The translations under genes were made by a program, and so were the position numbers. Positions 581 through 57,291 of a stretch of 64,000 nt of DNA are shown piece by piece. Origin of the DNA: Glandiceps talaboti (lineage: Eukaryota; Hemichordata; Enteropneusta; Spengelidae); contig NC_135552.1 of the NCBI RefSeq assembly GCF_964340395.1, positions 13,917,194 through 13,981,193 on the forward strand, given 5' to 3'. Each line of letters begins with the position of its first letter. Positions within the stretch are counted from its first letter, which is position 1. The notes under the pieces were generated by a model. That model was not told the origin of the DNA, did not search any database, and worked only from the letters and a program-made list of their open reading frames with translations.

Positions 581-12207
<11,627 letters not shown>

Positions 12208-20754: not shown

Positions 20755-20880
20755 GTAATAGTCTACATCTATCAGAGAAGTACCTGGTCGTTCTGCCATA
20801 ACAGTCTACGTCTGTCAGAGGGGTGCCTGGTCGTTCTGCCTTAACAGTCTACATCTGTCAGAGGGGTGCCTGGTCGTTCT
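20755..20880 (-). repeat. 43-bp tandem triplication spanning the receptor stop codon
   Basis: Three units, each with 'gtcagaggggtgcctggtcg' or a close variant and 'cagtctacatctgtc'. The unit nearest the gene encodes [12 protein letters not shown] and the stop of the U-box gene. The other two lie past the stop in the 3'UTR. Confidence 0.85.
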
Positions 20881-21911
20881 GATGGATCATCCCTTACATC
20901 CCTTTTCCGTTTATCTTTTTGCTCTCTGCGGTATCTCTTTTCAGCCTTCTTTCTGAACCTCTGGATTTCTTTTTCAAGTTCAACATTAGGTGCAAGACCA
21001 ATATCATTGAGTGGTTGACCAGTCACTGGGGATGTATGTGCTTTTGCAAACCATTCTGAAAACATAGATTCATGGTGAAGTAAGTCATACACTTTGACAA
21101 AAACAGAAGATTTTACAATTTGGCCACTAGGGGTGGTATCTGACAGTGGATTTTTTACTGTGTAGTGGGCCAGATTTGTTCTGCACTGTAGCAAACTTTG
21201 AAAATAATACTTGCCCAAGGTTTCATAGTTATATTCATGGCAAATGTCGACAACATGTATAGTTGATTTTCCGGTTCCAGGATGCATTGCGCGAAATGAC
21301 GTTGCTTATGTTGTTAGATTTAGTCTTGTTTTGTCTTTATTACATTTGAAAAAAAACCATTTCCATTATGAAACAATGGCAAGACATGTTGACCTCTTTA
21401 ATTATGGGTGATTTTATAGAACAAAGAGTGAACGTTCTACGGCATCGATGATAGAGTGGGATTTTACGGGTAAACCCAGGGTACCGTCATGTGACAACCA
21501 TCCCCCTGAGTAGCACGTGCAAACCCCTCCACGCATACAGAATACATAGCATTGCATGTAGAGACGCGCAATGCATCTTGGAATCTATTGTAATTAGTTT
21601 CAAATAGTTCCCCTTTTTTTCGTTTTCAATTGTGCAACTTTTAGTTTTGAAAACTGATTTTATTATTACTTCATGCATTTGTCATGTGTTTAGCACGCAT
21701 CATATTTCCCATACTGCACCATTCAAGATGGCCAGTGTGCTAGTTACCTATTCCATAATTTGTAGGAATTTGACTCACCCATGATATTGGTTCTTTCATA
21801 TGTATTACCGTCTGTTGCAGTGAACGGGTGAACCATAATGTCGTTGGTGATTGGACAGCGATATTTGCTTGGAATCTCAAAGTCACCTTGGATAGTGTCA
21901 TACATGTGATT
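20841..21911 (-). CDS. U-box domain and basic C-terminus (two exons)
   Basis: Exons 21911-21779 and 21055-20841. The U-box begins [20 protein letters not shown] and, after an intron inside the Glu codon before Trp, continues [16 protein letters not shown] and [14 protein letters not shown]. The E2-facing residues are all there: Ile of CPI, the Trp of EWF and the Pro of SPVT. A charged, probably helical tail ([17 protein letters not shown]) and [12 protein letters not shown] end the protein. Human WDSUB1 also pairs SAM with a U-box, but behind WD40 repeats, which are absent here. Confidence 0.9.
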
Positions 21912-24900
21912 CTGAAACAACAGACAATGAAATATTCCGTAAACAAACAAACAAACAAACAAACAAACAAACAAACAACTATTACGACAACACACTGAGA
22001 AAGCCATATTTCATAAATCCTTTTAATTCCACTGCTCTGTTAATCCAACCTCTGATTTCCTTACATTATTCATTCAAAATATAATTATTATATTAAAATA
22101 TTCATATTACTGTTTAAATATTTACTTCTCGTAATCCACCACTGTGACAATATCTTTATAACTTTATAATTACTTGATAATGAAATGCAAAATTAAAACC
22201 AAATAATTTCTTGTAAATAACCACAGTTTGGGACGATTACACAATGTCCCACAAACTCAATAAACAAACTTCTTTTGTTTAGGTCAAAACTCCCTCCTTT
22301 TTCCCCTTACCCTAAATAAACACAAATGTGACATCGACATGTCTATATATCATGTAAACCATAATGAAAATTGTAGTGGTCACACCACTATGATCGATGC
22401 AATGCAAAAACATGTAGAAACACATCAAAATAGTAACTTATCAACATCTCAGTAGTAAATACAAAACCTGTTGTCATTGAAGGCGTGAAAGTTTTCAAAA
22501 TTTGGTTAGAAATAGAAGTGCAAAATGAAGTTCAGCAATCGCTTTGATGCCAGACCCCCTCCCCCCTTGAAATGAATGAAGTTCACTTATAGAGCTTGTG
22601 TGACATTGTGTGATCAACCTTTAGGTTTCTAAGAATTTTTGAAGCTATACAACATGACTAAGGGTACAGTGGTATAATTGTTAACTATTCACTTCTTCAT
22701 AAAATCTAACACCAGTATGGTGAAGTAGAGAACTTATTTTCAAAATAAATCAGCAGTCTTAACTTTCCAAACACCATCACCACATGAAAGCATGTTGCAA
22801 GATTATGTATTGTCACATGTATCAAGCAACATACAGACAAAAACTCAGGTGCACCTCTCCACAAGTTGCACATGCAAAAGTAAACACATTTCCATTATAC
22901 ATTACTGTGACATTTGCCATGTTCCTCTTATTGTAAGCTTTGGTTTCATGTTGGCATAATATTAATCAATGTGTACTACTAACTACCTCTGGTGTTGATT
23001 TGACTTCAACTTGGCGTACTTGCACTGGCTGTAGGTAATGTGAAGGTGCAGCAGAGTAGCGATTCTGTGTGTTTTTATAAAAAAAAAATACAATCATGCA
23101 ATCTGAGTCTACCATGCATACTATAGACAACATAATAGACAACACTGTGTAGACCAATATTATAGACTACATTGTAGACTATATTATAGACCACAATAGA
23201 GACTATATTAATGACCATGTGTATGTACATATAGACAATGTTAGGGCATCTATACTGTGCACTGACTATGAACAAAGATTGGACACTTCAACATGTTGAT
23301 GGGTATTTGCCACTTGGTTGCCCAGAGAATTGGCTATTTGGCTTGACAATATCATTCCAGTATGCTGTGTCAGATAGCCATGACAAGTCTTTGGGCTAGT
23401 TATTTCGAGGAGAACAGGGTAAACTTATCGGGGTAAGTCAGATGTGGGATTGTACTATATAAGAGGCGTGATACATCCTTGGCTGGTAAAACTATTCAAG
23501 TAACATGTTTGAAACAATAGAATAGTCCAATACAATGCCATGTTCTCGTAAAAATAAACTTAACCCACAGATTCTGACATTCCCATAATTAAAAGTTTCT
23601 CAAGCCAGGTCACATATAGATGAACCCTGACACATTGTCTATACTTCTTCGTGATACATCTTTGAGTTTGTATTAATTTCTGTGACATTACAGATACTGA
23701 CATGCATGATAATGTACATAACAGTTACAGGACAGTTTCTGTAATACCGTAAACACAAGATGCTTGTCTGATCTTGCTTCCCCATTGCATTTGTCATCAG
23801 CACTATCAACTTGTACAGGAATCTTGCCGTTGCTTTCTGGTTCCTCAACTATTGTGTCCTGTGGCTGTGTCTTTATGTTTTGGGGAAAAGGAAGCAATGC
23901 GACAGGTTAAAGGTAAGGTGAAGCATTTTACAAGGTTCATCTTGAGTGGCTGTATAATAATGTAAGGCATTTATAAGGCTCATCCTGATTGGTTGTATAA
24001 TGTGAAGCATTTACAAACCTCATCCTGATTGGTCGTATAATGTGAAGCATTTACATGGCTCATCCTGATTGGTTGGATAGTGTGAATCAATTATAAGGTT
24101 CACAGTAATGGTTTTATAATTTGAAGTATCTACATGTTCTATTTGTTTTCCTGTGCCAACAGTATCATTAAGTTTCAAATGCACCTCATTACCTCTGTCA
24201 GAGGTTATGTTTTAACCCCAATTTGTCTGTCTGTTGGCAACATCTCTACAAAGTTATGGAAAAATTGCTTATGAAACAAGAACCAACAAGCTATATTTGT
24301 ACATCAACTTGATTGTAGCAAACCAATGGCATTACTAGCATCAGTCATTTATCTCCAACACTCAAGGGCACCCTTCATTATTTTTTTGTTTGGTTTGGTT
24401 CGAAATTGAATGGTGCTATGTTTTCACACCTTTCTTTGGTTTTTGATTGGTTTGAAGTTGGAATGGGAGTAAGTTTTCACCACGAGAACTGCTCACGATC
24501 AGTTTTTACAGAGGACTCAGGTATGTGCTCTATCAACTGCACTCTAGTTTCAACTTATACATTTGCCATCAAATATCTTCTAGATTTTAGACAAATATTT
24601 AGTGTACCTTTTCAGATCTCCTTGAGATCCTCTTCAACCTTTTCAAGATTCTCTTCGTAGGTCCCATTGGTATACCCATATTTCTCAAATCTTTGTCAGT
24701 CAAAATAAACAGGTCATCATACTTGATGTCCTCCTTGGCAAATATGTCAGCAAGCCCTTCTACATCCAGGTCAAGTAAGAACTGGTATACTTGTTTATCT
24801 AAGAAGTGTTAAAGATTCAAAATGGTAATTTTGTAGATTGTCACAGCAAGACCATGTTTAGTCATGACATGAAAGTAAAATGTCCACAATCATTCAAATT

Positions 24901-27900
24901 ATGATGAAAAGGTGACTTTTTTTTTTTTGGGGGGGGGGGGGGGGCTAAAACTCTTCATCTATTTTAATTAATTTTGTATATTACTGTCCCAATAAGAGTA
25001 TTTGCACATGAGGATCAGATGGTATTCTGCCCTAACTGGGCAGGATGGAATGATTCAAAGGTGTTAATGATCATATCGGGGATGGCATATTTTTATTACA
25101 TGCCAAACTGGTGGCAAATTTATGATTTTTGTAGTTATGATTATCTCTGGTCAGCTGCAACTATGGAATTTGTCATTCTGAAGAGATCAGTCGACCACGA
25201 CAGATTGAAAATCTTGATGCTAAAAACTTTCAACTGCTTGTGTTGTTATAACCTTTGTAAATCATTTGACCTACCAAGATGAACATTTTTGGTCATGTTT
25301 CTATGGTTACATTGTCGGAATTTGAGAATATCTTGTAATAAAAGTTACAGTGTACATGAAGGACGTCAAAAACTCAACTTTACTTCAATTGCAGACAGAT
25401 ACAGAAGATTAAATCTCCAAGTAATTGATAAAATTCAAGTTTAATTTTATTTCACCCAATGAAATATAGTCACTTTGAAACAGTCATATTAAAACAATTT
25501 TACTCTTAGAACCATGAAGAATATATTTTCCTATTACTTTCATACACTTTCTCTTTAGTTACCATAGAAACTTACCCATTGCTGGAGGTGCATTTGGTGC
25601 TCCCTCTGGAGGCAAATTCACATATGCTGAATCACCCATTGGCAAGCCGGCACCTTTCTTGATATCATCATCATTTTGATTACCTAGTTGATTACTTGGA
25701 TTAACAGATCTCATTGCCTCATACTTAGTTTTCTCCTCTGTAGTAAAGAATTGTGGTCTTTCGTAATCACTTCTCGGTGTCTGAGCAGGTATGGTATAGC
25801 CGTCATCATCCTGGTGTTGATTTCGGTTTGTCTGTGGTTTTTCATAATTAAAGTGGTGTATTGGGGCAGATTTAGGTGCTGGGGGTGCCGATGGAGCACC
25901 TGGTGAGTACAGCACTTGACCATGACCTTGAAATGATACCTGAACATGACTTCCAATGTCTGGATGTGAAGTGTATGGAGGTGGTGGCCCTGAGAAGATA
26001 AAAATATTAGATTGTCACTGGAACTTCAATCCATTAATATTAAATGATTTGCAGTTATATGTAAGATTTTAATAATCAAGAAGATGATTATGTAGATAAG
26101 AGAGTGAACATGTGTGTATTTGGGTCAGAGGTTGGGGTGGGGGATGGGTGGGTGGGGATTTGAAGCCCTTGGAAAGTCCCATTATCGGAATACTGGTATA
26201 CTTTCTTGTTACAATTAATTGTACTTTTATTGCATGGCTATGTGGGCACTAGCAGATGTCTATTACCCCAAGGTCTGTTATAAGTGGCAACTGCTATTTC
26301 CGCCAAGGAAATTATTTGCTACAGGCAATAAGTGTTTTATAACACATCACATTCCAAGGCACATATTCTTTCCAGAGAGAAAGAAAATCACTGGTAGGAC
26401 TAGTCTCGTGCTACTGTAATAGTGCCCTAGGGAAAATAGAAAATGGGTCACTAGTCCATACCATGTGACACTGTCTAGGCCAATCACTGAAAGGTGTGTG
26501 AAACTAAATATGTTACAACATTATGTAGTAGCTGAGACTAAATAAATAAAGTCAATAATTGACCATAATTTGCTATCGTGTTATTTGGGATTAAAAATAA
26601 GAGTAGTTATAATTATATTACATCTCATTGATGTTTTTCAACTTACCTGAGTACACTGATGACCTTCCATCAATTGTAGCATATACATGTTCAACAGCTG
26701 GACGTGCTCCATGGGTTGTTATTTGTACTGTAGACCCCATACTTTGATTTTCAAAATCATCATTCCCTTCATCCTCATCATGTCCTGCATACCGAGACTG
26801 TCTGTTGTTATCTTTGCAACCAAAAAGGTCAGGAAAAGGCAGTCTATGAAACAGAAAATATTACAGTTACCGCATTCACCTGTTCTGTTTAATACAACCA
26901 TGCAGCAACCAATAAGAAACTGCATGTCCTAGACTACAATAGCAAGATTGCAATTTCTTGCTACATTTTGTCTACCTGGTATTCATTAAAATGTACTGCA
27001 ACTAGACATAGCCATGTGGGTGCCAATGTTTTGACGTCTGCATTTGATGTGTGCATGGGGGGGGTACTTGAGTTCATTTTGTTTACACAAAGTGTCGCAA
27101 TAAACTGCATTCATTCAATCTTGCCATCAAAAAAATAGCATCATGAGCAGTTTCTTATTGTTTCTGCATGGTGGTATCAAACAAGGCCAGTGAGCTGTAA
27201 ATTGAAATGGGGTGCATTAAATATGGCATCAGTTTCCTATCAAAACATTCCTTGGGTTAAAACAAATCACACTTTTGAAAATCACTTTTAATTCACACAC
27301 AGTGCTCACAGGGCTTTACAATTACTGTCCCTGACATGGCCCTATAGGGATATTATGATTCTATATACATGTACATGTACTTCCCCAACTTCCTAGGGAG
27401 CATACAATCCATTGCAGCATCTGTAAGTGCATAGCATTAAATCATTCATATTGCAACCTCATAGCATTTTGAGTGTAGGTGATAACCACCTGTGTGCACG
27501 GCATGTTGAGTGCAGATGGTAACAACCTGTCTGGACAGGATGCTATTTTTAACCTGTAGTGTCCATAATCATACACTGTTACCTGTTTAAATCAATCATA
27601 GTACGGTCCAATCACAGCTGGTACATTTATTACCTTTTGTTTTTGTGCTTCATGTATCCAACAGTCAGAAGGATGACAGCAATAATGATTAAAAGAACTG
27701 TCACAAAACCAATGGCAATTGCTCCTCCATTACTTTTGTCATCATTAGGAAGTGGAATAGGTCCATCTGTATGAGAAAATGTTTACATGCATCTTTGGTT
27801 TCATTTGTTTTGAAATATAAAATTGCTATCAAATATTGATCAATATGCTACATTTTTTTCTATCCCCATAAAACTCCTTTGTTGTATTGAATATCTTTCT

Positions 27901-39900: not shown

Positions 39901-40065
39901 TTTATTTATTTATTTATTTGTTTGTTTGTTTGTTTGTTTGTTTGTTTGTTTGTTTGTTTGTTTGTTTGTTTGTTTGTTTGTTTGTTTGTTTGTTTGTTTG
40001 TTTGTTTGTTTGTTTGTTTGTTTGTTTGTTTGTTTGTTTGTTTGTTTGTTTGTTTGTTTGTTTGT

Positions 40066-40148
<83 letters not shown>

Positions 40149-40165
40149 TTCATTCATTCATTCAT

Positions 40166-40200
<35 letters not shown>

Positions 40201-42840: not shown

Positions 42841-42935
<95 letters not shown>

Positions 42936-48900: not shown

Positions 48901-51900
48901 GCAACGTTTTTCCTGTGTGAAAACAATACAGGTGAAATAGAGAAACTATTTCAATTTGGTGATTCTTGACAATAGAGCAAAGTTTATGTGATCTGAAATA
49001 ATTTACTCTCAAGAACCCAAAGTTTATGAAAATACCTATATTTCTTGTAGTGATGTTGCCCTTGGAGGTATATTGAATCATGTTAGTTAAAGTAGGTTTG
49101 TAATGTAAGTTAAAGGAGAATGATCCAATTCCATAAATTTTAAATGCACCCTTATATATTTTGACCTGTGGCTAGTTATGACATAACAAAAGCATCTGAC
49201 CCTATGTGTTAGAGATAATAATAGGAGTTACACCTGACTGCCCTTTTACTTCAGTGTAGACCATTGTGTGTGCCGAATGATTCATTTACTAAGAGAAGGG
49301 TCAACAGTCTGACGATGTTTGCATGAGTGTACTTGTAAAATTGTACAATTGTATGAGTAAACATTTGGGTGAGGATAATTAGATATTATTCTCCAAAATT
49401 TTTCTTCTTTCAGCCAAGGAAAATAAGAGTGACCTGAGTGGCCCTTGTCCCTATGAGTCACTAGACTCGTAGTGACAACCCTTTAGGTCAAGAGTATTTT
49501 CCGGCTGAATGAAGAAAAATATCGGGGAATAATATAATTACACCATCCCCAGTGAAAACAAAGAAAGATCTGTGAAATTGATGGCAATTTGGAATGTTTT
49601 GACTCATACTTCGACCACAACAGAACCAATGACATAGACACATGAATTGCCATGACATAGAACGACCAGAGTATAATATATTCCATATCTTTCGTTGACC
49701 CTGGCTCATGCATGGTATACCATGGCATGGTTTACGCTTGTTTCAAAAAATAAGTTTATGAGATAAACTTATAAATTTATCATTCAACCTCTTTTTAAAC
49801 TATCAGGAAATTTCCTGTTAATATTTTTGTACCTTTTTTTTTAGTTTTCAATCAACTTTTCTACATTTTGTGTTTATTTCAGCATACAATGACAGAAATA
49901 ATCATTACTTAAATTATGAACTCAATGTTATAATTTATATTTGCAACAGATAATGAAAAAAAGATTAATAAATGTAAATTCTTTATACATGTAGTCACAT
50001 GTTGTTTTGGCACTAGATTTATTTTAGGCTCAATGTAAACAAACATTTTTTCTGCAGAAATAAGTCCAGCTAATATACTTTAATTTATGAGTTGTTGTAT
50101 TTGTAAATTAAGCTGTAGTGAAAAGTGTCAAGAACAGCTGCACTGAATACATGGGCTGACTGGATGACTTATTTTCAAGTAGTGTCTATAATTTTGTAAT
50201 ATGTCATTAAGTTTGGAATGTATACTGCCTTGTAGGTGACTGTGACAAAGAAGAGTTCAACCTGACAATTAATGCTCCTTTCCAACTGAAGGTATTATAA
50301 TGATCAACTTAGGGAGTTCAGAATCCAATATGGCTGCCATATGATTTGGCTATATGTTACTAGCTTTAAAGACTTTAAGCAAACAACTGAAATGAAAATT
50401 GAAACAATGAATCCTTACATAACTTCCATTTTACAAACGCAAAAAGCTTTTATAGACCAAGTTCAGATTAGTATTAAAATTTATGGATGAAAAACAGCAG
50501 ACTGCTGTCCAGCAGAGATATAGAAAAAGTTTGGACAAGAATAAAAGACTAATCCCATTTAATCCTTATGACTCCACTGATAACACTAATATATAAGAAC
50601 CTGGGATTGAAACCCTGGCCTTTAAGTCACCTCCATGATAATGCAGTACAACCTACCTAGTTCACAGCCAAGAGAAAATGAGATATCATCAACAGAGATG
50701 TCTCCTGCATCACTACGTCCAATTTCCCCTTCAAAGTATAACTGAAAGCTCTCTGCATTACTGAGTGTTATGAGGGTAAACTTCCAATCATTGCCTTGTG
50801 GGGATGACTCTAGCCACACTGTTGATATGGCATGGGAGGTTGTGGACAACATTTTGAGTCTCAATACACCGACATCATTGCCAGTCATGTGGTAGTAAAA
50901 ACGGATCTATAACAAAAGTACCAAAAATGTGGATTGGCATTTCAGGGAAAACAAATGATATCATAGCACATATGTCCATTATATTATAGCACGTCACGTC
51001 ACGTCACGTCACGTCACGTCTCATCTCATCTCGTCTCATCTCATCTCATATCATATCATATCATATCAAATCATATCACATCACATATATATCATTTTAT
51101 CATATCTAATATAATATAATATAATATCACATACTATCATATCATATCATATCACCTTACCTTACATAGTCTATCTGTTTTAGGTCATCTGTAGTAGGTA
51201 TATAAATGTCTGTGGTAAGGCCAGTCTGGTTCTAATCAACTTACCTAACATAGGTCGTCTGCTGTGGAATGTCTGTGGTAAGGCCAGTTTGGTTCTGATC
51301 AACTTACCTTACATAGGTCATCTGTTGTGGAATGTCTGTGGTAAGGCCAGTCTGGTTCTAATCAACTTACCTTACACAGGTCATCTGTTGTGGAATGTCT
51401 GTGGTAAGGCCAGTCTGGTTCTAATCAACTTACCTTACATACCCTGGTAGGTCATCTGTTGTGGAATGTCTGTGGTAAGGCCAGTCTGGTTCCAATCAAC
51501 TTACCTTACATAGGTCGTCTGCTGTGGAATGTCTGTGGTATTGGCCAGTCTGGTTCCAATCAACTTACCTTACATAGGTCATCTGTTGTAGGTAGGAATG
51601 TCTGTGGTAAGGCCAGCTTGGCTTTATCATATTGTGTTCTACCTGTTGCCTCCATCAACATATAGTATTTGTCTGAAAACAAATGCATGTGACATGTTTT
51701 ATTGCATCAATAAGGAGTGGGCATTCCCTCATATGACGTCAACTTTTGCATCACTGCTTCCCGGAATAGAAGACTGAAAGAAAACGACCCTTGTAGCAGT
51801 GTTTAAGGTCCATTCTATTGACAGACTGTATTTCAATTTCATTTTTGTTTTTCACTTGAAGAGCTCAGCTCAAGACCACAGCCCAGGTTTTAGTATATAC

Positions 51901-54678
51901 CTACTAAAAGTGTATTAAAAGGGAAGGCCCATATTACAGTATTAACATGTGGTTGTGAAAAATTTAATTATCATACATATCTCAATTACAAAGGTTATAG
52001 AGTTACACTATCTGATAATACACAGATCTGCATGGATAAAGTTAATAATCCTAAAATAAATGAAGTCAACTGATATTTCAAGATTTAAACCACTCCTCAG
52101 AGCAAATAATATGACATACCAGACATGCCGTTATGATCACCATCTGGCCCAGTGTTTGGTGTCGGGGTGGAACCTTTTTGTCTGGTCCAATCAAAATCAT
52201 CGTTACTTGGCTGGATCCAATTACATAAATCATCCTGGAAGTCACACCTACCAGGGTATGAATCTGTCAAGCAAGTAAATTATGTCAAGGATCGGCACAT
52301 GATGAGATACAATGGCATCAAAGCTGGGTCATACCAACAAGCCATAATTAGCTACTGAGTTCAACCATGTGTAGGGTCTATGGTTTAACTATAGTGCGCA
52401 CTTATCATCACCCTCTTCAACAAGTGCTAACCAATCATTAACTAGCTAAATAAGGCTAACTAATTACCACCTAGCTCAACAACAACTAGCCAATCAAGAT
52501 CTAGGTAAAACAAGTTCTAACTATAATCATCACCTAGCTAAACAGGTGCTGACCAATCATCAATCAGCTATACAGGTGCTGACCAATCATCAATCAGCTA
52601 TACGGGTGCTGACCAATCATCAACAACCTACACAGGTGCTGACCCATCATCAACTAGCTACAGGTGCTGACCAATCACCAGCTAGTGACACAGGTGCTGA
52701 CCAATCATCAAGTAGAGGTGCTGACAAATCATCAACTAGCTATACAGGTGCTGACCAATCATCAATCTGCTAGCCAAACTAATTAAGTGCTGAACAATCA
52801 TTATCATATCTCACTCATCAAGTGCTGATCATCGAAACTCAAAATGTTCACACTATTAATCAATGAAATCACATCTCAAGTACATGAACAATATACTCTC
52901 AGTCAGTCAACTGTCAAAACCTTACCGCATAATGAGATGTGTTCATCACTAGCATCACCACAATTGTCTGTGTAATCACACAGTTTGCCATTAGACACAC
53001 ACATCTCATTGGAGCAGATGAATTGATCTAAGTGACAAGGTGGTGGCGCCATATCTGGAGGTTGAAAAATACACTAAATATAAATTATATCATACACTTA
53101 ATCAGGAACAACAGGACACTACTTGATTTTTAAAAAACTAATTGTACATTTATGAAATGTTGATATGAAGCATGAAGACTCACTAAAAGCGGAAAACGCC
53201 ACGCCATAAAATAGAAACGTTTTCATAAAAAGTGGGTTCTGGAAAGTAAACATTTCATGATTTTACATCACCTACAATTGTCTGTGATTTCAGAGAAACA
53301 GTAAGATCGGATCTTGAATGTGCATTCATAATTGTACTTTAAAACAGTCTGAATGACTTAGAAATGACAATTAAAATCATTTTATTAATTTAAAATTAAT
53401 TCCCAAATTTCAGCAATAAATGATAAATGTTCACTCAGATACATGCTCATGGGTTTGCCATCTGACAATCAGTGACATTGTGGTTTTTTTTTGTAATCTT
53501 CATTTTTTTTTCATCAGAATGAAGAAGTACTGGGCCGGCTGGTCGGGTCATAGGAAACACAGAATTAACTTAGATCATCCTCATACCTACCTGTGCATTT
53601 TACTGCTACATCAGTGAAACGCATGCCTGGTGCTAAACATTGTGAGCGTGCAACACCCCAACCGTCATTAGAACACTCTGTTAACAATAGCTCTGTTCCA
53701 GTACAATCTACATTGTCAAGATGTACCGGTACACTATGTGATGGAGGGTAAAAGCTTGTTGCATCTTCAGCACTCTGATATCCAAGTTGTTGACAGATGA
53801 CCTTTCCTTCAGTACTCTGATTCCAGACTCCATCATATTCACAAATGGTTCCCCAAGTGTTATTATAATAGACTTCAACTCTTCCTTCATTTGGTGAACT
53901 CGAGGATCCGTCGTTTACTAACCGTACTTTACCATCCTCTGTGAAATATTAGGACTAATGAGTTTAGTGACATCTTCATGTTTCAAGTAAAAAAAAAAAT
54001 GAGTAAATTCGACCAAGCATCTGAGTTTGCCTGTCACAATTCAGTTGTACTAAATACTATCCACTAGTGATGAACTTCTTAGTTCAGTTGTGCTACAAAA
54101 GTATTTTTTCATTCAAACCTCAAAATCTGAAAACATCTTTAAGGTTTAGATGCAGGTGTCTTCATCATCTCTAACACTTTATTTAGAAATCTATAATATG
54201 ACAGAACGTCATGTCACATAAGTGTAAGTGAAACTGTAGCACACTCGGGTTATTTGCACAAGTGCTTGCAGTGTTCTCTGTGCCCAATATGTTTATCTGA
54301 AACAGTGTAGCGAATGATTGCATCCTCATTTGCATATAATTTGCATGCAGGTAAGCAAATATCTTTTCGGTATTGCACTTCAGTGAAAATACCACTAGTA
54401 TGCAGACGTGCACCAGTGCAAGTAATCTTTGGTACATATGTAATAATCTTACAGTACCTCCTTTGAAACAGCCATCTGAGAAAGAAGTATCGTCTAGTGC
54501 TATGTCACCTCTGACCCCATTACCAACAACACCCTCTATGATAATCTGAAATGTAAAATATTAAATTTTATCAATTACAATCTCTGAACACGCTCTGAAA
54601 AAGTACTAAAGATAATATCAACAACTATGGACCTATGAATAATTCATACATCTTCTGCAATAAAGGAGTACAAAGATG

Positions 54679-54710
<32 letters not shown>

Positions 54711-55283
54711 TGTATGTATGTATGTATGTATGTATGTGTATTATAAATTTATCTATGTACATGGTATGTATGTATGTATGTATGTATATATATATGTAGA
54801 AAGAAATGCATATGGAACTTGTAAGTCAGTCCGTATATGTAAAATCCGACGTTTCAAATAAAAATTCTTTTTCAAGGTATAATCGGTGAGCTTTAGACAT
54901 GTTAGGTAAACACCTGAACACATCTGAATGTTATGGAACAGAACGACAACCGCGCGTGATTAACGGTTATACGTGTGAAAAGTTCTAATATTCGCACATA
55001 CCAAATAGAACCCAATAGAACATGCCATGTATGTATGTATGTATGTATGTATGTATGTATGTATGTATGTATGTATGTACGTACGTACGTACGTACGTAC
55101 GTACGTACGTATGTATGTATGTATGTGATTTTAGACATCTGACAAAGTTTTACATTAAAGTATGCTTCAGCGGGGACTTCAAAACAGAATAAACAGTGAT
55201 ATGGGTTAAAACAACAGTTCAATTTGCAGAGTTCTTGCCTTATCTTGTCATGTACACTTTAGCACTCACAAACACATGCACGT

Positions 55284-55366
<83 letters not shown>

Positions 55367-57291
55367 TACACACACACACACACGCAGAAACTATACCATG
55401 CAATAGCACAATCGCACTATTTGTACCGTTATGCAGTTGTGGTAAAACTCTGACTGCAGATATCATATACAGTAATGAACAACTTTGAGTATTTCCAAAA
55501 GCCTTATATTGAGAGGGAAAATGAAAATATTAACTTTAAACTTATTACAAAAATGAGGTTATAACTGAAATGAACGGAAAATCTGACAATTAAAGGCACA
55601 CGTTGGATTTGGATAAAAATTTGGGGGATTTGAAAAAAACAGTTGCCTGACAGAACTATAATAAATGTTTAACCTGAACATAACAGCCAGATTCTATCTA
55701 TCATCATGAGCTCATACTTATGACAGCACTAACGTGAAAATTGTGGGATTCAAACATTGGCCTTTAAGTAGTACAGCTAAATAAGAAATGACATACCTGG
55801 AATGGATGTTGCATACTGAGGAATGATACAGTGCCATCAATCCAGGAATTTCCTTGTGACCCATTTATTGACCACCGTAAATCTTCAACAGTGGAACTCA
55901 CTTCTTTGGAGTAGATATTAAGACTGCCAAGGGCATTCCCATACATGTGATAGTAAAAGGAAAGCTGTTGACCATGAAAATAAATGAAGTTTAGAAAATT
56001 GAGAAAGTTACAGATACATCAGTGATGAGCAATTGAAATAGGGATGCAGTTTATAAATAAAAATATGCAAATAGTGCTATACTTATAGTAATGACAATAG
56101 TTATTTGCTCTTAAATCTTCCTCCCAGCATAAAAGAAATTTTAAAAACATTGTCATAGACTGAATGAAAAAATTGTACAAAAAATATGAAGGAATATGAA
56201 CCCAACCAAGCAATATTGATTCCCACTCAGTTTGCTGATTTCTGAAAAGTACTTTGAATTGGTATCGAGTTAAAGAATGGTTGACATTCTACCTGGTAGG
56301 ACAGTCTTTTATGATACCTGTCTTTACTTTGTCATATCCACTATCCCTCAAAGATCTATATAATCCTTGTGTATGGACATGTACACACAAACTAAGAACC
56401 CCCATGAAACCGTCAACATTTCAATTTTTGTACTTAAATTTCCAGGCAAGCAAAAGGCAAAAGTCACTTTGTTTAGCTACATTTCTTGTGTTTAGAAACT
56501 TCAAAGCAACAAGAACCCATTTTTACCTACTCTGAGGTGACTACGTCATCTCTGAAATAGAGATATGCAAATTGTCAAATCTTACTCAAAAGAGTTCTGT
56601 TTTGCACTGGGGTGGTGCATCATGGGTAATAACAATGTCAGGAACTTCACACCTCTTGAATCTCAGCCCAAATTACGCCGAGGCAATGGAGAATCTGTCA
56701 TTGTACACTTCCACATGATACTTTGTGCCAGTGTACATCAGGTCTCTTCCAGGCCAGATTTGCCAGTATTTATAATTGTAACTCTAGTACAGATAAGTCA
56801 TGTGCTGCAGTGGAAATTAACAATATCTGAGTCTTCATATTTCAGCACGAGAAATGCTACTTTAGACAAAACCACCACATATCTTGTTCCCTTTCAAGTA
56901 ACATCATAAAGTGTTCATTCACTTCATAAATTGAGGCAATGTTTGCTATAACTGATCAGTCTGCATGGTCACAAGTAGAGCCTCATTTTCTATCTCTTAT
57001 ATGTATATAACATCGCTCAAGAGACCATAATACTTACTGTACAGTCATCGCTTTCTGATGGGTTGATATAGTTACTGATAAGTCTTGCATCTTCATCTTC
57101 TTTTCTTGGATATGATGTCTCTATGTAGATATAATGCCCTGATCCATCGCCATTGGTGTGATCGCCTGTTGGTCCTGTACCTGAAGTTGGTGTACTGCCA
57201 TTCTGTCTGATCCAGTCAAAATTGTCAGCAGTCATCTGTACCCACTGACACAGTGAGCTTTCAAAATCACATGGCAACGGATAGACAAACT
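20841..57291 (-). CDS. Scavenger-receptor-like membrane protein (MAM/SRCR/LDLa/CUB) with cytoplasmic SAM and U-box domains
   Basis: Predicted single-pass surface receptor with an intracellular E3-ligase-type end, 5' incomplete. Thirty-four exons in transcript order: 57291-57038, 55964-55797, 54545-54458, 53938-53591, 53054-52926, 52263-52120, 51672-51569, 50906-50657, 46846-46706, 45465-45322, 43692-43595, 43198-43031, 40779-40683, 40367-40206, 39159-38980, 38767-38639, 38156-37965, 35768-35671, 35226-35101, 34629-34527, 33784-33558, 32777-32561, 31443-31294, 30706-30515, 29575-29534, 29336-28956, 27766-27634, 26801-26647, 25989-25576, 24798-24608, 23870-23748, 23064-22987, 21911-21779 and 21055-20841. 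Every exon has GT-AG ends and the frame closes through all of them, about 1,920 codons. Most module borders are phase 1, typical of shuffled extracellular exons. The outside resembles pattern-recognition or endocytic receptors. The ligand is unknown. The signal-peptide exon was not found. The least certain steps are tail to SAM, where only phase supports the join, and the weak donor after 23,748. Confidence 0.8.
21944..21978. repeat. (CAAA)n microsatellite
   Basis: About nine tetranucleotides just upstream of the acceptor of exon 21911-21779. Confidence 0.9.
22987..23870 (-). CDS. Linker exons between SAM and U-box
   Basis: Exons 23870-23748 ([20 protein letters not shown]..) and 23064-22987 ([20 protein letters not shown]..), both phase 0-0, with no known fold. 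The donor of the first ('acg|gtatta') is weak. An in-frame ATG at 23,897, just before the acceptor, could start a shorter U-box-only product. These two are the least secure exons in the model. Confidence 0.55.
23900..24130. repeat. About 44-bp tandem repeat
   Basis: Five units with 'gtataatgtgaagcatttac' and 'ctcatcctgattggt', in the intron between the SAM and linker exons. Confidence 0.8.
24608..24798 (-). CDS. SAM domain exon
   Basis: About 63 residues matching the sterile-alpha-motif pattern: [17 protein letters not shown], an acidic turn [13 protein letters not shown], then [16 protein letters not shown] and a basic end [16 protein letters not shown] domains mediate self-association and scaffolding. 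Entry is phase 1, matching the tail exon. Exit is phase 0 at 'aaag|gtacac'. If that donor is not used, a stop follows after VH. Confidence 0.85.
24919..24946. repeat. Poly-T/poly-G run
   Basis: Homopolymer runs in the intron between the tail exon and the SAM exon. The rest of that 0.8-kb intron (24,799-25,575) shows nothing recognisable. Confidence 0.85.
25576..26801 (-). CDS. Cytoplasmic tail with tyrosine and proline docking motifs
   Basis: Exons 26801-26647 and 25989-25576, about 190 residues, acidic and proline-rich with no fold recognised. Short motifs in order: HVYATI, a WW-type PPPPY, YEKP, YTIP and YERP (YxxP, Crk/Nck type), YEAM (YxxM, PI3-kinase p85 type) and YVNL (YxN, Grb2 type). 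The exon ends in AM plus one base at a perfect 'gtaagt' donor, so a phase-1 exon must follow. The first one downstream is the SAM exon. If the intron is kept, translation stops five codons later (GKFLW then stop). Confidence 0.88.
26217..26485. repeat. Dispersed repeat family D, copy 2
   Basis: Same block order as 8,655-9,000: 'gggcactag..gatgtctattacccc', 'aggcaataagtgtttta', 'cacatcaca', 'cacatattctttcca', 'accatgtgacact'. Confidence 0.65.
27290..27465 (-). mobile_element. Partial SINE
   Basis: Only the tail half remains: 'gctttacaattactg', 'agggagcatacaatccattg', 'attgcaacct'. The head is missing, and the sequence runs directly into two to three units of the 37-bp minisatellite. Confidence 0.65.
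27466..27600. repeat. Short second locus of the 37-bp minisatellite
   Basis: Two to three units ('ttttgagtgtaggtgataac', 'ggcatgttgagtgcagatgg') followed by 'aggatgctatttttaacctg' and 'cataatcatacactgtta'. The same right flank ends the large array near 30,340-30,390. Confidence 0.8.
27634..27766 (-). CDS. Transmembrane helix exon
   Basis: After a short acidic juxtamembrane stretch ([11 protein letters not shown]) comes a hydrophobic helix beginning [16 protein letters not shown] and ending near LLTVGY, then the basic stop-transfer MKHKNKR. The orientation is type I: CUB side outside, basic side inside. It ends in phase 2 and joins the tail exon at 26,801. Confidence 0.93.
28003..28337. mobile_element. 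MITE family A copy
   Basis: Ends 'agtaatccagccttctgttt' and 'aaattgaaggctcaactacc', with the inner 'gaccatgtgatcaacatagt'. Full length, in the intron between CUB2 and the transmembrane exon. Confidence 0.75.
28956..29336 (-). CDS. CUB domain 2 with a furin-type site
   Basis: Single phase 1-1 exon. Hallmarks: [49 protein letters not shown] loop carries RRRKR followed by SSD (codons at 29,068-29,082), matching the furin consensus R-X-K/R-R. It is the domain nearest the membrane. Confidence 0.9.
29790..30310. repeat. 37-bp minisatellite in the CUB1-CUB2 intron
   Basis: About 14 units of 'gacagcatgttgagtgtagg' plus 'tggtaaccacctgtgtg'. Because 37 is not a multiple of three, long open frames with a 37-residue period appear on the minus strand. 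They are not genes. Units contain the palindrome 'ggtggtaaccacc'. Confidence 0.95.
30515..31443 (-). CDS. CUB domain 1 (two exons)
   Basis: Exons 31443-31294 ([30 protein letters not shown]) and 30706-30515 ([36 protein letters not shown]). CUB landmarks SPNYP, the CxW of strand C and LYDG are clear. A 42-bp exon (29575-29534, [13 protein letters not shown]) links to CUB2. Confidence 0.92.
30944..31255 (+). mobile_element. tRNA-derived SINE, plus orientation
   Basis: Best-preserved head in the window: A-box-like 'tggttagagtggccggctt' and a consensus B box 'ggttcgagcccc' at about 30,995. The body and the 'gtaaagcgctttgagca' tail match the other copies. It lies in the CUB1 intron. Confidence 0.85.
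31817..32118. mobile_element. MITE family C copy
   Basis: About 300 bp. The half 'tattcctcaatatttcactt' through 'aatactcatgacctaagggt' is the complement of 'ccttaggtcatgagtatttt' through 'aaaaatattggggaataata'. The outer part 'ctatgtcatg..ctacatcac' matches the copies at 44,144 and 49,384. Confidence 0.75.
32561..33784 (-). CDS. Divergent SRCR domain 5 and Thr/Pro-rich linker
   Basis: Exons 33784-33558 ([38 protein letters not shown]) and 32777-32561 ([18 protein letters not shown]). The SRCR fold is recognised from [19 protein letters not shown] and the last cysteine, but the first half lacks the usual GRVE..WGTVC pattern. The second exon runs on into [12 protein letters not shown], a likely O-glycosylated stalk ahead of CUB1. 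Confidence 0.8.
33270..33340. repeat. 18-bp triplication
   Basis: 'ccatattggatttggtgg' occurs two to three times in tandem in the SRCR5 intron. Confidence 0.8.
34527..35768 (-). CDS. SRCR domain 4 (three exons)
   Basis: Exons 35768-35671 ([15 protein letters not shown]), 35226-35101 ([32 protein letters not shown]) and 34629-34527 ([27 protein letters not shown]). It has one more intron than the sister SRCR domains. Confidence 0.93.
35600..35735 (-). repeat. 65-bp tandem duplication of the SRCR4 exon end and donor
   Basis: The block 'atacttactgtaccccactgggagtc..gataaatttctaatct', which contains the exon end [13 protein letters not shown] and its 'gtaagt', is repeated 65 bp further into the intron as 'cttactacaccccactgg'. 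The copy encodes a close variant of the same peptide. Confidence 0.88.
37003..37310. mobile_element. MITE family A copy
   Basis: Left arm 'agatagacacaaactaaaag', with 'ttgatacaaaagtgataagc' inside, and right arm 'ttttaattttgtgtctatct'. Worn at both tips. Confidence 0.65.
37390..37720. repeat. 46-bp minisatellite of CCAAT-containing hairpins
   Basis: Seven units, each with 'cctattggacaccaatagg' or a variant: 8-bp arms around a 3-base loop, so each unit carries an ATTGG and a CCAAT facing each other, followed by 'tctaggacc'. It lies in the receptor intron between exons 37965 and 35768. Confidence 0.9.
37965..38767 (-). CDS. SRCR domain 3 (two exons)
   Basis: Exons 38767-38639 ([27 protein letters not shown]) and 38156-37965 ([42 protein letters not shown]). 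Confidence 0.93.
38980..40367 (-). CDS. SRCR domain 2 (two exons)
   Basis: Exons 40367-40206 ([33 protein letters not shown]) and 39159-38980 ([29 protein letters not shown]). The donor of the first exon sits a few bases from a 300-bp TTTA/TTTG repeat in the intron. Confidence 0.93.
39893..40201. repeat. (TTTA)n-(TTTG)n-(TTTA)n tract against a splice donor
   Basis: About 308 bp: a short TTTA run, roughly 40 TTTG units, then TTTA with a TTCA interruption. It ends within five bases of the minus-strand donor of exon 40367-40206. The open frames of FVCL or YLFI repeats across it are artefacts of the repeat. Confidence 0.97.
40683..45465 (-). CDS. MAM domain 3 (four exons)
   Basis: Exons 45465-45322 ([20 protein letters not shown]), 43692-43595 ([14 protein letters not shown]), 43198-43031 ([29 protein letters not shown]) and 40779-40683 ([22 protein letters not shown]). 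Introns fall at the same places as in MAM1 and MAM2, plus one extra. Confidence 0.93.
42776..42952. repeat. (AC)n and long (GA)n microsatellites
   Basis: A short AC run at 42,776-42,792 and a GA run of about 105 bp at 42,842-42,952, in the intron 5' on the plus strand of exon 43198-43031. Confidence 0.95.
43400..43600 (-). repeat. Two-unit repeat running up to the MAM3 donor at 43,595
   Basis: Blocks 'ggataagag(g/a)aaagaagtacca', 'gtagaggg(g/c)gctatttg' and 'gt(g/a)aacttatta' or 'gtgtacttacata' occur twice, about 100-120 bp apart. The unit next to the exon begins exactly at the donor, so the junction may have been copied as in other exons, but the older unit is worn. Confidence 0.5.
44144..44411. 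mobile_element. MITE family C copy
   Basis: Contains 'cttgtcgttctacgttacga', 'ttcaaaattgccattacttt' and 'gaagaaaaatattgggtaat', in the order of the 31,817 copy. Confidence 0.7.
45660..46705 (-). repeat. Degenerate array copying the LDLa2 exon end and donor
   Basis: Units of roughly 80-120 bp recur near 46,650, 46,570, 46,165, 45,830, 45,745 and 45,660. On the minus strand the best preserved (near 46,575-46,605) reads [11 protein letters not shown] and then 'gtaagttttat', matching the true exon end [11 protein letters not shown] and its donor. Older units keep 'gatgaaagt' and the Cys-Asn end but have worn donors. Confidence 0.85.
46706..46846 (-). CDS. LDL-receptor class A domain 2
   Basis: Single phase 1-1 exon: [40 protein letters not shown]. 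Six cysteines and the SDE calcium site are present. Confidence 0.93.
47200..47860. repeat. About 155-bp tandem array with a diverged end unit
   Basis: Four units, each with 'ggatcgtatcacgacgaaaa', 'tgtcataga..cactgt', 'gatctgttcaagcatgtctg' and 'gttatggctttggacatgg'. The last unit differs and ends in 'acttcgtccggcggagacta', which looks like the true edge of a dispersed element. It lies upstream of LDLa2 in a receptor intron. Confidence 0.85.
48632..48799. mobile_element. MITE family B copy
   Basis: 'cagtgtgccctgtaagccaa' at the left, 'cattagaggacacactg' at the right, and central 'gcaccaacatttggtgtt'. Confidence 0.75.
49384..49686. mobile_element. MITE family C copy, opposite orientation
   Basis: Starts 'tattattctccaaaattttt', has 'ctatgagtcactagactcgt' in the middle and ends 'agaacgaccagagtataata'. 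Complementary in order to the 44,144 copy. Confidence 0.75.
50657..52263 (-). CDS. MAM domain 2 (three exons)
   Basis: Exons 52263-52120 ([23 protein letters not shown]), 51672-51569 ([26 protein letters not shown]) and 50906-50657 ([37 protein letters not shown]). The middle exon's 3' end and donor are tandemly copied into the following intron. Confidence 0.93.
50991..51155. repeat. Pentanucleotide tract grading CGTCA to TCATA
   Basis: Starts as pure 'cacgt' units, drifts to 'ctcat', 'catat' and 'ataat'. It abuts the 63-bp MAM2 array. Confidence 0.9.
51150..51672 (-). repeat. 63-bp array copying the MAM2 exon end and its splice donor
   Basis: On the minus strand each unit reads as the exon end, peptide (L)ALPQTF then TTDDLCK, then 'gtaagttgat' and about 20 intron bases. 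The true donor adjoins 51,569. Further intact donors ('caacttac' on the plus strand) end at 51,504, 51,433, 51,370, 51,307 and 51,244, mostly 63-64 bp apart, and a worn copy lies near 51,160. Using a later donor adds TGA in frame right after the first junction. Confidence 0.92.
52540..52775. repeat. 30-bp minisatellite
   Basis: About eight units of 'caggtgctgaccaatcatca' plus 'atcagctata', in the LDLa1-MAM2 intron. The unit is a multiple of three, which explains the open frame across it. Confidence 0.9.
52926..53054 (-). CDS. LDL-receptor class A domain 1
   Basis: Single phase 1-1 exon with six cysteines and the calcium-cage motif: [13 protein letters not shown], then [14 protein letters not shown]. 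Preceded by a short MAPPP linker. Confidence 0.92.
53591..53938 (-). CDS. SRCR domain 1 (single exon)
   Basis: One symmetric phase 1-1 exon. It has [57 protein letters not shown] and a final VKC. It is the only SRCR in this gene not broken by introns, so it may have been copied in separately from the other four. Confidence 0.93.
54458..57291 (-). CDS. MAM domain 1 (three exons)
   Basis: Exons 57291-57038, 55964-55797 and 54545-54458. MAM hallmarks in order: [58 protein letters not shown] and [17 protein letters not shown] domains are about 160-residue extracellular beta-sandwich adhesion modules. The first exon begins in phase 1, so at least one coding exon must precede it. Confidence 0.93.
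54677..55126. repeat. (TATG)n and (TACG)n microsatellites
   Basis: TATG runs at 54,677-54,735, 54,766-54,790 and 55,027-55,126. The last contains a block of eight or nine 'tacg' units in its middle. Confidence 0.95.
55287..55383. repeat. (CA)n microsatellite
   Basis: About 45 dinucleotides with two interruptions, in the MAM1 intron. Confidence 0.95.

What the first reader, a model, noticed from the sequence alone, without database searches (positions are those of the whole stretch)
20841..57291. A scavenger-type receptor that appears to carry its own SAM and U-box E3 ligase
Seen: 34 exons on one strand keep one frame from MAM/SRCR/LDLa/CUB modules through a transmembrane helix and a Tyr/Pro tail into a SAM domain and a U-box. 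The tail exon ends at a perfect donor in phase 1, and the next domain exon downstream (SAM) enters in phase 1. The U-box keeps its E2-contact positions. Known: U-box proteins recruit E2 enzymes, SAM domains oligomerise, and WDSUB1 combines SAM with a U-box in a protein with WD40 repeats. Inference: ligand binding outside could cluster SAM domains and switch on local ubiquitination, giving a one-piece receptor-ligase. I do not know of an animal transmembrane protein with this layout.
Basis: partly seen in the sequence, partly recalled or inferred. Interest (0 to 1): 0.88.

Follow-up and report, generated by a model that had tools for sequence, protein, structure and literature searches.

The report
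Scavenger receptor with built-in ubiquitin ligase
An acorn-worm gene is predicted to encode a cell-surface scavenger receptor whose inner end carries its own ubiquitin-ligase domain, a layout also predicted in a second acorn-worm family, so that sensing outside and protein tagging inside may sit in one molecule.

Summary
The window is from the acorn worm Glandiceps talaboti. 34 minus-strand exons keep one frame from MAM, SRCR, LDLa and CUB domains through a transmembrane helix and a Tyr/Pro tail into SAM and U-box; a likely 35th exon outside the window adds a signal-like start (1966 aa). The disputed tail-to-SAM join has outside support: (1) NCBI's G. talaboti model (389 aa) is letter-identical to mine from the end of the TM exon through tail, SAM and U-box, skipping two in-frame linker exons; (2) a Ptychodera flava model (1947 aa, another family) matches end to end at 50% identity; (3) a degenerate inverted copy on the same contig has the same order. 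It is not WDSUB1, which sits on another contig. Caveats: the NCBI G. talaboti isoform starts after the TM helix, so a soluble product is possible; no transcript was seen; ligase activity and clustering are inferred. One 2016 paper mentions, in one sentence, cnidarian DMBT-like predictions with a U-box. I read the gene as a membrane-anchored, probably clustering-responsive E3 ligase.

The parts
54458..57291 (-). MAM domain 1 (exons 57291-57038, 55964-55797, 54545-54458); first exon enters in phase 1 from the candidate signal exon outside the window
   Evidence: P. flava match
53591..53938 (-). SRCR domain 1, single exon
52926..53027 (-). LDLa repeat 1 (acceptor uncertain, may lie near 53052)
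50657..52263 (-). MAM domain 2 (exons 52263-52120, 51672-51569, 50906-50657)
46706..46846 (-). LDLa repeat 2
40683..45465 (-). MAM domain 3 (exons 45465-45322, 43692-43595, 43198-43031, 40779-40683)
38980..40367 (-). SRCR domain 2 (exons 40367-40206, 39159-38980)
37965..38767 (-). SRCR domain 3 (exons 38767-38639, 38135-37965; second acceptor uncertain)
34527..35768 (-). SRCR domain 4 (exons 35768-35671, 35226-35101, 34629-34527)
32561..33784 (-). SRCR domain 5 and Thr-rich linker (exons 33784-33573, 32777-32561; border uncertain)
30515..31443 (-). CUB domain 1 (exons 31443-31294, 30706-30515)
29534..29575 (-). 42-bp linker exon ([14 protein letters not shown]), shared with P. flava and the paralogue
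28956..29336 (-). CUB domain 2
27634..27766 (-). transmembrane helix and stop-transfer exon ([31 protein letters not shown]); P0003 starts at the Met in MKHKNK
26647..26843 (-). cytoplasmic tail exon 1
25576..25989 (-). cytoplasmic tail exon 2: PPPPY, YxxP (YEKP, YTIP, YERP) and YVNLPPE motifs; donor phase 1
24608..24798 (-). SAM domain, single exon, acceptor phase 1
23748..23870 (-). 123-bp in-frame linker exon, absent from NCBI isoform X2 (cassette)
22987..23064 (-). 78-bp in-frame linker exon, absent from NCBI isoform X2 (cassette); acceptor chosen by hand, the automatic chain began it at 23028; not independently confirmed
21779..21911 (-). U-box 5' part ([14 protein letters not shown]...[11 protein letters not shown])
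20841..21055 (-). U-box 3' part with EWF and SPVT, basic C-terminus, stop codon; P0003 confirms the acceptor at 21055 (the automatic chain chose 21157)

Best explanation
The gene encodes a type I membrane receptor: a signal-like N-terminus, then MAM-SRCR-LDLa-MAM-LDLa-MAM-SRCR x4-CUB-CUB outside, one TM helix, and inside a Tyr/Pro-rich disordered tail, a SAM domain, an alternatively spliced linker and a C-terminal U-box. SHOWN: the exon chain, the conserved join, intact SAM and U-box by profile, and a U-box fold by model. INFERRED: the ectodomain binds multivalent targets such as microbes or debris; engaged receptors crowd together; SAM-SAM contact packs the U-boxes side by side; the U-boxes recruit a UBE2D- or UBE2N-type E2 and put ubiquitin on the receptor's own Lys-rich C-terminus and on nearby proteins. 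This marks the complex for uptake or builds a ubiquitin signalling platform, while pTyr (YxxP, YVN) and PPxY motifs bring in further partners. Skipping the two linker exons would couple SAM directly to the U-box.
For: Open 35-exon frame with consistent phases. Pfam SAM_1 and U-box over cut-off. P0003, NCBI G. talaboti LOC144434539 isoform X2, on a record of 29,028,597 bases, the length of contig C5, is letter-identical to the end of the model minus two exons. P0001, P. flava 1947 aa, aligns 5-1946 to model 16-1965 at 50% (53% in the MAFFT alignment) and holds the same Pfam domains in the same numbers. The paralogue has MAM-SRCR-CUB-TM-tail-SAM-U-box in order. U-box CPI, W and second-loop P align with PUB12/OsCIE1 (that these are the E2 contacts is recalled). 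AlphaFold blocks for SAM and U-box mostly pLDDT 80-90; Foldseek matches U-boxes crystallised with E2: CHIP chains TMt 0.77-0.86, CIE1 0.77-0.79. Nearest solved SAMs by sequence: USH1G, ANKS4B, DGK-delta, tankyrase; that the last two polymerise is recalled. The window copy has fewer unique changes than the paralogue: SAM 3 vs 10 of 56 columns, U-box 6 vs 10 of 61.
Against: No transcript, protein or assay was seen. NCBI isoform X2 of this species lacks TM and ectodomain. P. flava's record is an automatic model, and SRCR models are known to be wrongly split or merged (PMC13228809, passages). Only one full-length relative was found by three searches, none outside Hemichordata. No SAM chain is among the 50 Foldseek rows shown; the whole-model scores are low (mean pLDDT 55, pTM 0.29). 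No ligand, E2 or substrate evidence. The paralogue's U-box, as I join it, has lost the Trp and Pro, so ligase function is not kept in every copy. Pairwise dN/dS with the paralogue is about 0.47, only moderate constraint.
Confidence: 0.6

Rival explanations
1. Two products from one gene: the receptor ends in the tail or stays low, while an internal start near the TM exon makes a soluble tail-SAM-U-box protein of about 389-456 aa that works in the cytosol.
For: NCBI's isoform X2 starts at the Met right after the TM helix. The tail exon read-through stops within a few codons and polyadenylation-like hexamers follow (AATAAA at 25451 and 25097; not tested against chance in this AT-rich DNA). No G. 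talaboti protein of 1046-3328 aa was found.
Against: The Met has a weak start context (TACATGA) and neither P. flava nor the paralogue has a Met there, whereas the candidate signal-exon ATG has a strong context (AAAATGG) after an in-frame stop. 'Isoform X2' implies another isoform not seen; lengths 606-1045 aa were outside both searches. P. flava's model is full length.
Confidence: 0.2
2. Receptor with a pseudo-ligase scaffold: the U-box folds and binds partners but does not transfer ubiquitin; SAM and U-box are assembly modules.
For: The paralogue's U-box, as I joined it, scores above the Pfam cut-off (39.9 bits) without the Trp and Pro, so the profile match can persist without them. No activity data.
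Against: Window and P. flava U-boxes keep CPI, W and SPVT and score 52.6 and 65.8 bits.
Confidence: 0.12
3. Annotation artefact: a scavenger receptor gene lies next to an unrelated SAM/U-box gene and exon chaining, mine and NCBI's in P. flava, merged them.
For: SRCR gene models are prone to wrong splitting and merging; phase agreement alone is weak.
Against: P0003 joins the TM-exon end and both tail exons to SAM and U-box. Order is conserved in two families and in an inverted paralogue. The open frame round the SAM exon holds no ATG before the domain; I made no systematic search for another start exon. The tail motif YVNLPPE before SAM is shared with P. flava.
Confidence: 0.04
4. A WDSUB1 that lost its WD40 repeats and sits by chance beside a receptor.
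For: The U-box is nearer to G. talaboti WDSUB1 (alignment score 142, 43%) than to the four other U-boxes compared from outside its own family (scores 94, 70, 78, 78).
Against: A WD40-SAM-U-box gene is present at C17:1472.8-1477.9 kb. SAM identity to it is 29%, and in the automatic chain the introns inside its SAM and U-box lie elsewhere.
Confidence: 0.03

Closest known systems
Ptychodera flava 'SRCR domain-containing protein DMBT1-like isoform X2' (P0001, NCBI automatic model)
   Same: Same domain order end to end, 50-53% identity, same tail motif YVNLPPE, SAM, U-box and C-terminus TP(M/L)TDVD
   Different: 1947 vs 1966 aa; different Tyr/Pro repeats in the tail; the record's name mentions neither SAM nor U-box
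WDSUB1 (WD40-SAM-U-box)
   Same: SAM followed by a U-box; in HEK293 cells WDSUB1 raises ubiquitination of the membrane protein USH2A through the scaffold WHRN (PMC10238197, passages), a two-piece analogue
   Different: WD40 repeats instead of ectodomain and TM; present separately in this genome; SAM 29% identical, other introns
Act1/TRAF3IP2 with IL-17 receptors (recalled; listing; passage in PMC3087547)
   Same: A U-box-type ligase acting at an immune receptor
   Different: Separate protein recruited through SEFIR domains (recalled); divergent U-box
RNF43/ZNRF3 transmembrane E3 ligases (starts of abstracts)
   Same: One-piece membrane ligase whose turnover is controlled from outside by R-spondin
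   Different: RING instead of U-box, no SRCR/CUB/MAM ectodomain, no SAM (all recalled)
Cnidarian DMBT-like predicted proteins with 'UBOX' (PMC5119243, passages)
   Same: SRCR plus CUB, with MAM, fibronectin and UBOX named among the accompanying domains
   Different: One sentence and a figure key; the passages seen say nothing on SAM, a TM join, conservation or function of these; sequences not seen

Membership tests
Animal U-box ubiquitin ligases | Complete U-box domain | tested here: met
   Pfam PF04564 52.6-56.7 bits, positions 1-72 of 73; Foldseek to CHIP, E4B, PUB
Animal U-box ubiquitin ligases | Hydrophobic residue in the first loop, Trp-type helix residue and Pro in the second loop for E2 binding (recalled) | tested here: met
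   CPI, EWF and TSPVT aligned with PUB12/OsCIE1 and P. flava; the paralogue, with its last exon placed by hand, fails W and P
Animal U-box ubiquitin ligases | Ubiquitin transfer activity | not testable with these tools
   needs an assay
WDSUB1 | WD40 repeats before SAM and U-box | tested here: not met
   No WD40 in the model; a WD40-SAM-U-box gene is at C17
SRCR superfamily receptors | SRCR domains over the curated cut-off | tested here: met
   Five SRCR stretches, 303.2 bits in all
SRCR superfamily receptors | Membrane anchor with ectodomain outside | tested here: inconclusive
   Hydrophobic stretch in exon 27766-27634 and a signal-like candidate first exon; no dedicated topology or signal-peptide predictor was run
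RNF43/ZNRF3 and PA-TM-RING ligases | Protease-associated ectodomain and RING finger (recalled) | tested here: not met
   No such Pfam match at E <= 0.01
Polymer-forming SAM proteins | Self-association of SAM | not testable with these tools
   Nearest solved SAMs USH1G, ANKS4B, DGK-delta, tankyrase at E 2e-6 to 3e-3

The most novel reading that the evidence does not exclude
A one-piece ligand-gated ubiquitin ligase: a pattern-recognition receptor in acorn worms whose ectodomain clustering polymerises its SAM domains and directly activates its own U-box, with splicing of the linker setting the gain and a degraded copy as possible decoy. It would be a membrane class of animal U-box protein beside the seven main human-type genes, doing in one chain what receptor, adaptor and ligase do in others.
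Probability: 0.35. Interest if true: 0.88.

Novelty: new variant of a known kind. Interest (0 to 1): 0.72.

Why it matters
A survey of animal U-box genes lists seven main human-type genes, and words beginning 'transmembrane', 'membrane' or 'receptor' do not occur in its text (PMC3087547, passages). A receptor that carries its ligase covalently would let one ask, with one gene and one ligand, whether clustering alone can switch on a U-box, and whether scavenger uptake is steered by ubiquitin written at the receptor. It may also show how invertebrate receptors gain signalling ends by exon joining.

Tried and rejected
Considered and rejected: a mere phase coincidence (P0003 and P0001 cross the join); WDSUB1 degeneration (a separate WDSUB1 was found); the paralogue as clean second proof (it carries a frameshift in its SRCR exon and lacks the middle of the ectodomain, so it counts only as evidence for order). 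In one search the automatic chain stepped round that frameshift with a false intron, took up a simple repeat and ended in a wrong last exon; I placed the paralogue's last U-box exon by hand (weak BLAST match, E 0.007), so a missed small exon that would hold the Trp and Pro is not excluded. The first low-penalty chain took up simple repeats and was dropped. Per-exon dN/dS with the paralogue is weak evidence: short exons, and the SRCR row there is spoilt by the frameshift.

Led nowhere: Saccoglossus immunity paper PMC10210618 (word search only: no occurrence of scavenger, SRCR, ubiquitin, domain architecture or SAM domain). The listings of ten paper searches showed no paper about this gene; 'transmembrane U-box' and three variants gave 0 papers. 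The library holds open-licence papers only. Cnidarian sequences of PMC5119243 could not be read (no supplements allowed, no protein searches left).

Not settled: which U-box genes the C22 and C16 matches are; whether other hemichordates such as Saccoglossus have the gene; the neighbourhoods of the other SAM matches were not examined.

Full report
WHAT AND WHERE. The window lies at C5:13917194-13981193 of a 590-Mb genome in 47 contigs. A protein search returned 'uncharacterized protein LOC144434539 isoform X2 [Glandiceps talaboti]' on a record of 29,028,597 bases, exactly the length of contig C5, and it is letter-identical to window exons. The genome is therefore that of the acorn worm G. talaboti (Hemichordata, Enteropneusta, Spengelidae).

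THE GENE. An exon-chaining script with splice and codon scores gave chains of 36 and 31 exons on the minus strand, by intron cost. Codon scores were trained on exons of this same gene, so the chain is not independent of them. From the 36-exon chain I dropped two exons (52720-52679, 37570-37481) that lie in tandem repeats and are bridged without an insert in P. flava, and moved two acceptors by hand (to 23064 and 21055). That leaves 34 exons in the window, 57291 to 20841, among them the 42-bp exon 29575-29534 which P. flava and the paralogue share. On the version without that exon and without the first exon (1902 aa), Pfam lists MAM (3 stretches), SRCR (5), CUB (2), LDLa (2), SAM_1 and U-box, all above cut-off. 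The TM exon 27766-27634 holds the run [26 protein letters not shown] followed by KHKNKR. No topology predictor was run.

THE START. A scan of the 57 kb upstream for ATG-led stretches with a hydrophobic run and a phase-1 donor printed 12 rows, some of them alternative starts of one stretch. The second-ranked, at window-equivalent 73242-73095 (L015:9095-9242), reads MAIESTSC...YGWMFFFSAFYVVFAGVSSEGPTLPPDY|E. P. flava has ...IIFTMVFQSVQSQVAPTLSPNHE at the same border. Its ATG context is AAAATGG with an in-frame stop upstream. I chose it over the first-ranked row for its resemblance to P. flava. The whole model is then 35 exons and 1966 aa.

THE JOIN. Tail exon 25989-25576 ends CAATGG|gtaagttt in phase 1; SAM exon 24798-24608 enters in phase 1, its only open frame. 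Three lines go beyond phase. First, P0003 (389 aa) runs from the last codons of the TM exon through both tail exons, SAM and both U-box exons, and equals the end of the model minus exons 23870-23748 and 23064-22987; these are 123 and 78 bases, phase 0, so a pair that can be skipped in frame. Second, P0001 of P. flava (family Ptychoderidae) aligns from residue 5 to 1946 of 1947 with 16-1965 of the model at 50% identity and 1840 bits, through YVNLPPE, SAM and U-box to TP(M/L)TDVD. Third, on the same contig, about 145 kb beyond the first exon and on the other strand, a shorter copy at C5:14135614-14150743 has, by BLAST match to P. flava and by reading, MAM, three SRCR, two CUB, a TM exon with the same phases (in 1, out 2), a short tail, SAM and U-box. 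No other copy was seen: all 7 matches to P0003 in the genome (15 candidates scored) lie in these two genes.

LIMITS OF THE THREE. P0003 lacks the TM helix: its first Met is the one in GYMKHKNK. Either an internal start makes a soluble isoform, or the model is truncated. The Met has a weak context (TACATGA), and P. flava and the paralogue have none there, so I lean to truncation; but 'isoform X2' also says that more isoforms exist, which I could not see. P0001 is an automatic model, and a recent preprint warns that SRCR models can be split or merged wrongly (PMC13228809, passages). The paralogue has a frameshift in its SRCR exon, and its U-box, with the last exon placed by hand, reads EY----DISLISG where the window has [13 protein letters not shown]; it is probably decaying. 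Compared with P. flava, unique changes are 3 (window) vs 10 (paralogue) over 56 SAM columns and 6 vs 10 over 61 U-box columns. Pairwise dN/dS is 0.46 (outside) and 0.47 (inside).

IS THE U-BOX INTACT. It spans profile positions 1-72 of 73 and aligns with PUB12/OsCIE1 over CPI, the W of the helix and the P of the second loop. That these are E2 contacts is recalled. AlphaFold of P0003 with P0001 as the only other row gives blocks mostly of pLDDT 80-90 for SAM and U-box and a disordered tail; mean pLDDT 55, pTM 0.29. Foldseek has 27 matches at E <= 0.001; they are U-box proteins and one RING-like domain, among them CHIP and CIE1 in complex with E2. No SAM chain is among the 50 rows shown.

WHAT KIND OF SAM AND U-BOX. 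The genome search with the U-box family gave 12 matches. By reading frames I place C6 (two) as CHIP-like and C23 and C10 (three) as UBE4-like, by recall of those families; C4 and C7 hold a U-box by Pfam; C17 (two) is WDSUB1; one is the paralogue; C16 and C22 are unassigned. The SAM family search gave 39 matches of 134 candidates; one of them lies beside the C17 U-box. The C17 chain has WD40, SAM (77.0 bits) and U-box (80.4 bits) by Pfam. The window U-box scores 142 (43% of 65) against WDSUB1 and 94, 70, 78 and 78 against the C4, C7, CHIP-like and UBE4-like ones; its SAM is 29% identical to that of WDSUB1, and the introns inside SAM and U-box differ. The nearest solved SAMs are USH1G, ANKS4B, DGK-delta and tankyrase. 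So the U-box is nearest to the WDSUB1 type, the SAM is not, and the gene is not WDSUB1.

HOW IT MOST LIKELY WORKS. Shown: architecture and conservation. Inferred: ligand binding outside by SRCR, CUB, MAM and LDLa modules; crowding; SAM contact; U-box pairing; ubiquitin on the receptor's basic C-terminus and neighbours; uptake or signalling. The tail holds PPPPY, YEKP, YTIP, YERP and YVNL; P. flava has PPAY, YETP (2), YERP (2) and YVNL. YxxP as an SH2 (Crk-type) site and PPxY as a WW (NEDD4-type) site are recalled readings. A two-piece parallel is known: in HEK293 cells WDSUB1 raises ubiquitination of membrane-bound USH2A, more so with the scaffold WHRN (PMC10238197, passages).

WHAT IS KNOWN. 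Three protein searches (2 hits of 4841 candidates; 1 of 575, the query itself; 2 of 4316) gave P0001 and P0003 as the only hits with SAM and U-box; P0002 and P0004 have a U-box without SAM by their listed Pfam domains. The searches are limited by length and shared words, so absence outside hemichordates is not shown. PMC3087547 (passages) counts seven main animal U-box genes plus Act1, and mentions a few sequences with just SAM and U-box, two of them from sponges. PMC5119243 (passages) says that cnidarian DMBT-like predictions combine CUB and SRCR with other domains 'including MAM, fibronectin, UBOX'; this is the nearest prior mention that I saw and lowers the novelty claim. The SRCR survey of 29 metazoans (PMC10855680, passages) has no occurrence of U-box, ubiquitin or hemichordate in its main text.

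VERDICT. The finding is real and unusual: a conserved, predicted transmembrane scavenger receptor with its own SAM and U-box. I rate it a new variant of a known kind (U-box ligases; transmembrane E3s), not categorically new, because one-piece membrane ligases exist and the mechanism is untested.

Noticed in passing
L035:4730-4999 and 6960-7283 (C4); also L006 (C7:8984803-8985000): At C4 a stretch with part of a ubiquitin-conjugating (E2, UQ_con 43.4 bits, positions 26-70 of 140) domain lies about 2 kb upstream of a U-box stretch on the same strand; C7 holds a related U-box (53% identical). Possibly an E2 and a U-box E3 in one gene.
   Followed up: partly
C5:14135614-14150743 (L030, L031): Inverted, shorter, probably decaying copy of the gene about 145 kb beyond the first exon: frameshift in the SRCR exon, U-box apparently without the Trp and Pro that usually bind E2; a possible natural ligase-dead version or pseudogene.
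   Followed up: partly
51205-51616, 35577-35706, 20756-20881: Tandem repeats (units of 63, 65 and 43 bp; 6.3, 2.0 and 2.9 copies) that overlap exon ends of this gene: a MAM2 exon end with its splice donor, an SRCR exon end with its donor, and the last codons with the stop codon.
   Followed up: partly
29792-30310: Minisatellite of 14 copies of a 37-bp unit in the intron between CUB1 and the linker exon; open in several frames and taken for coding by the most permissive exon chain.
   Followed up: no
25451, 25445, 25097, 24968 (minus strand): Polyadenylation-like hexamers (AATAAA or ATTAAA) in the intron after the tail exon, where read-through stops within a few codons: a possible receptor isoform without SAM and U-box. 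Not tested against chance.
   Followed up: no
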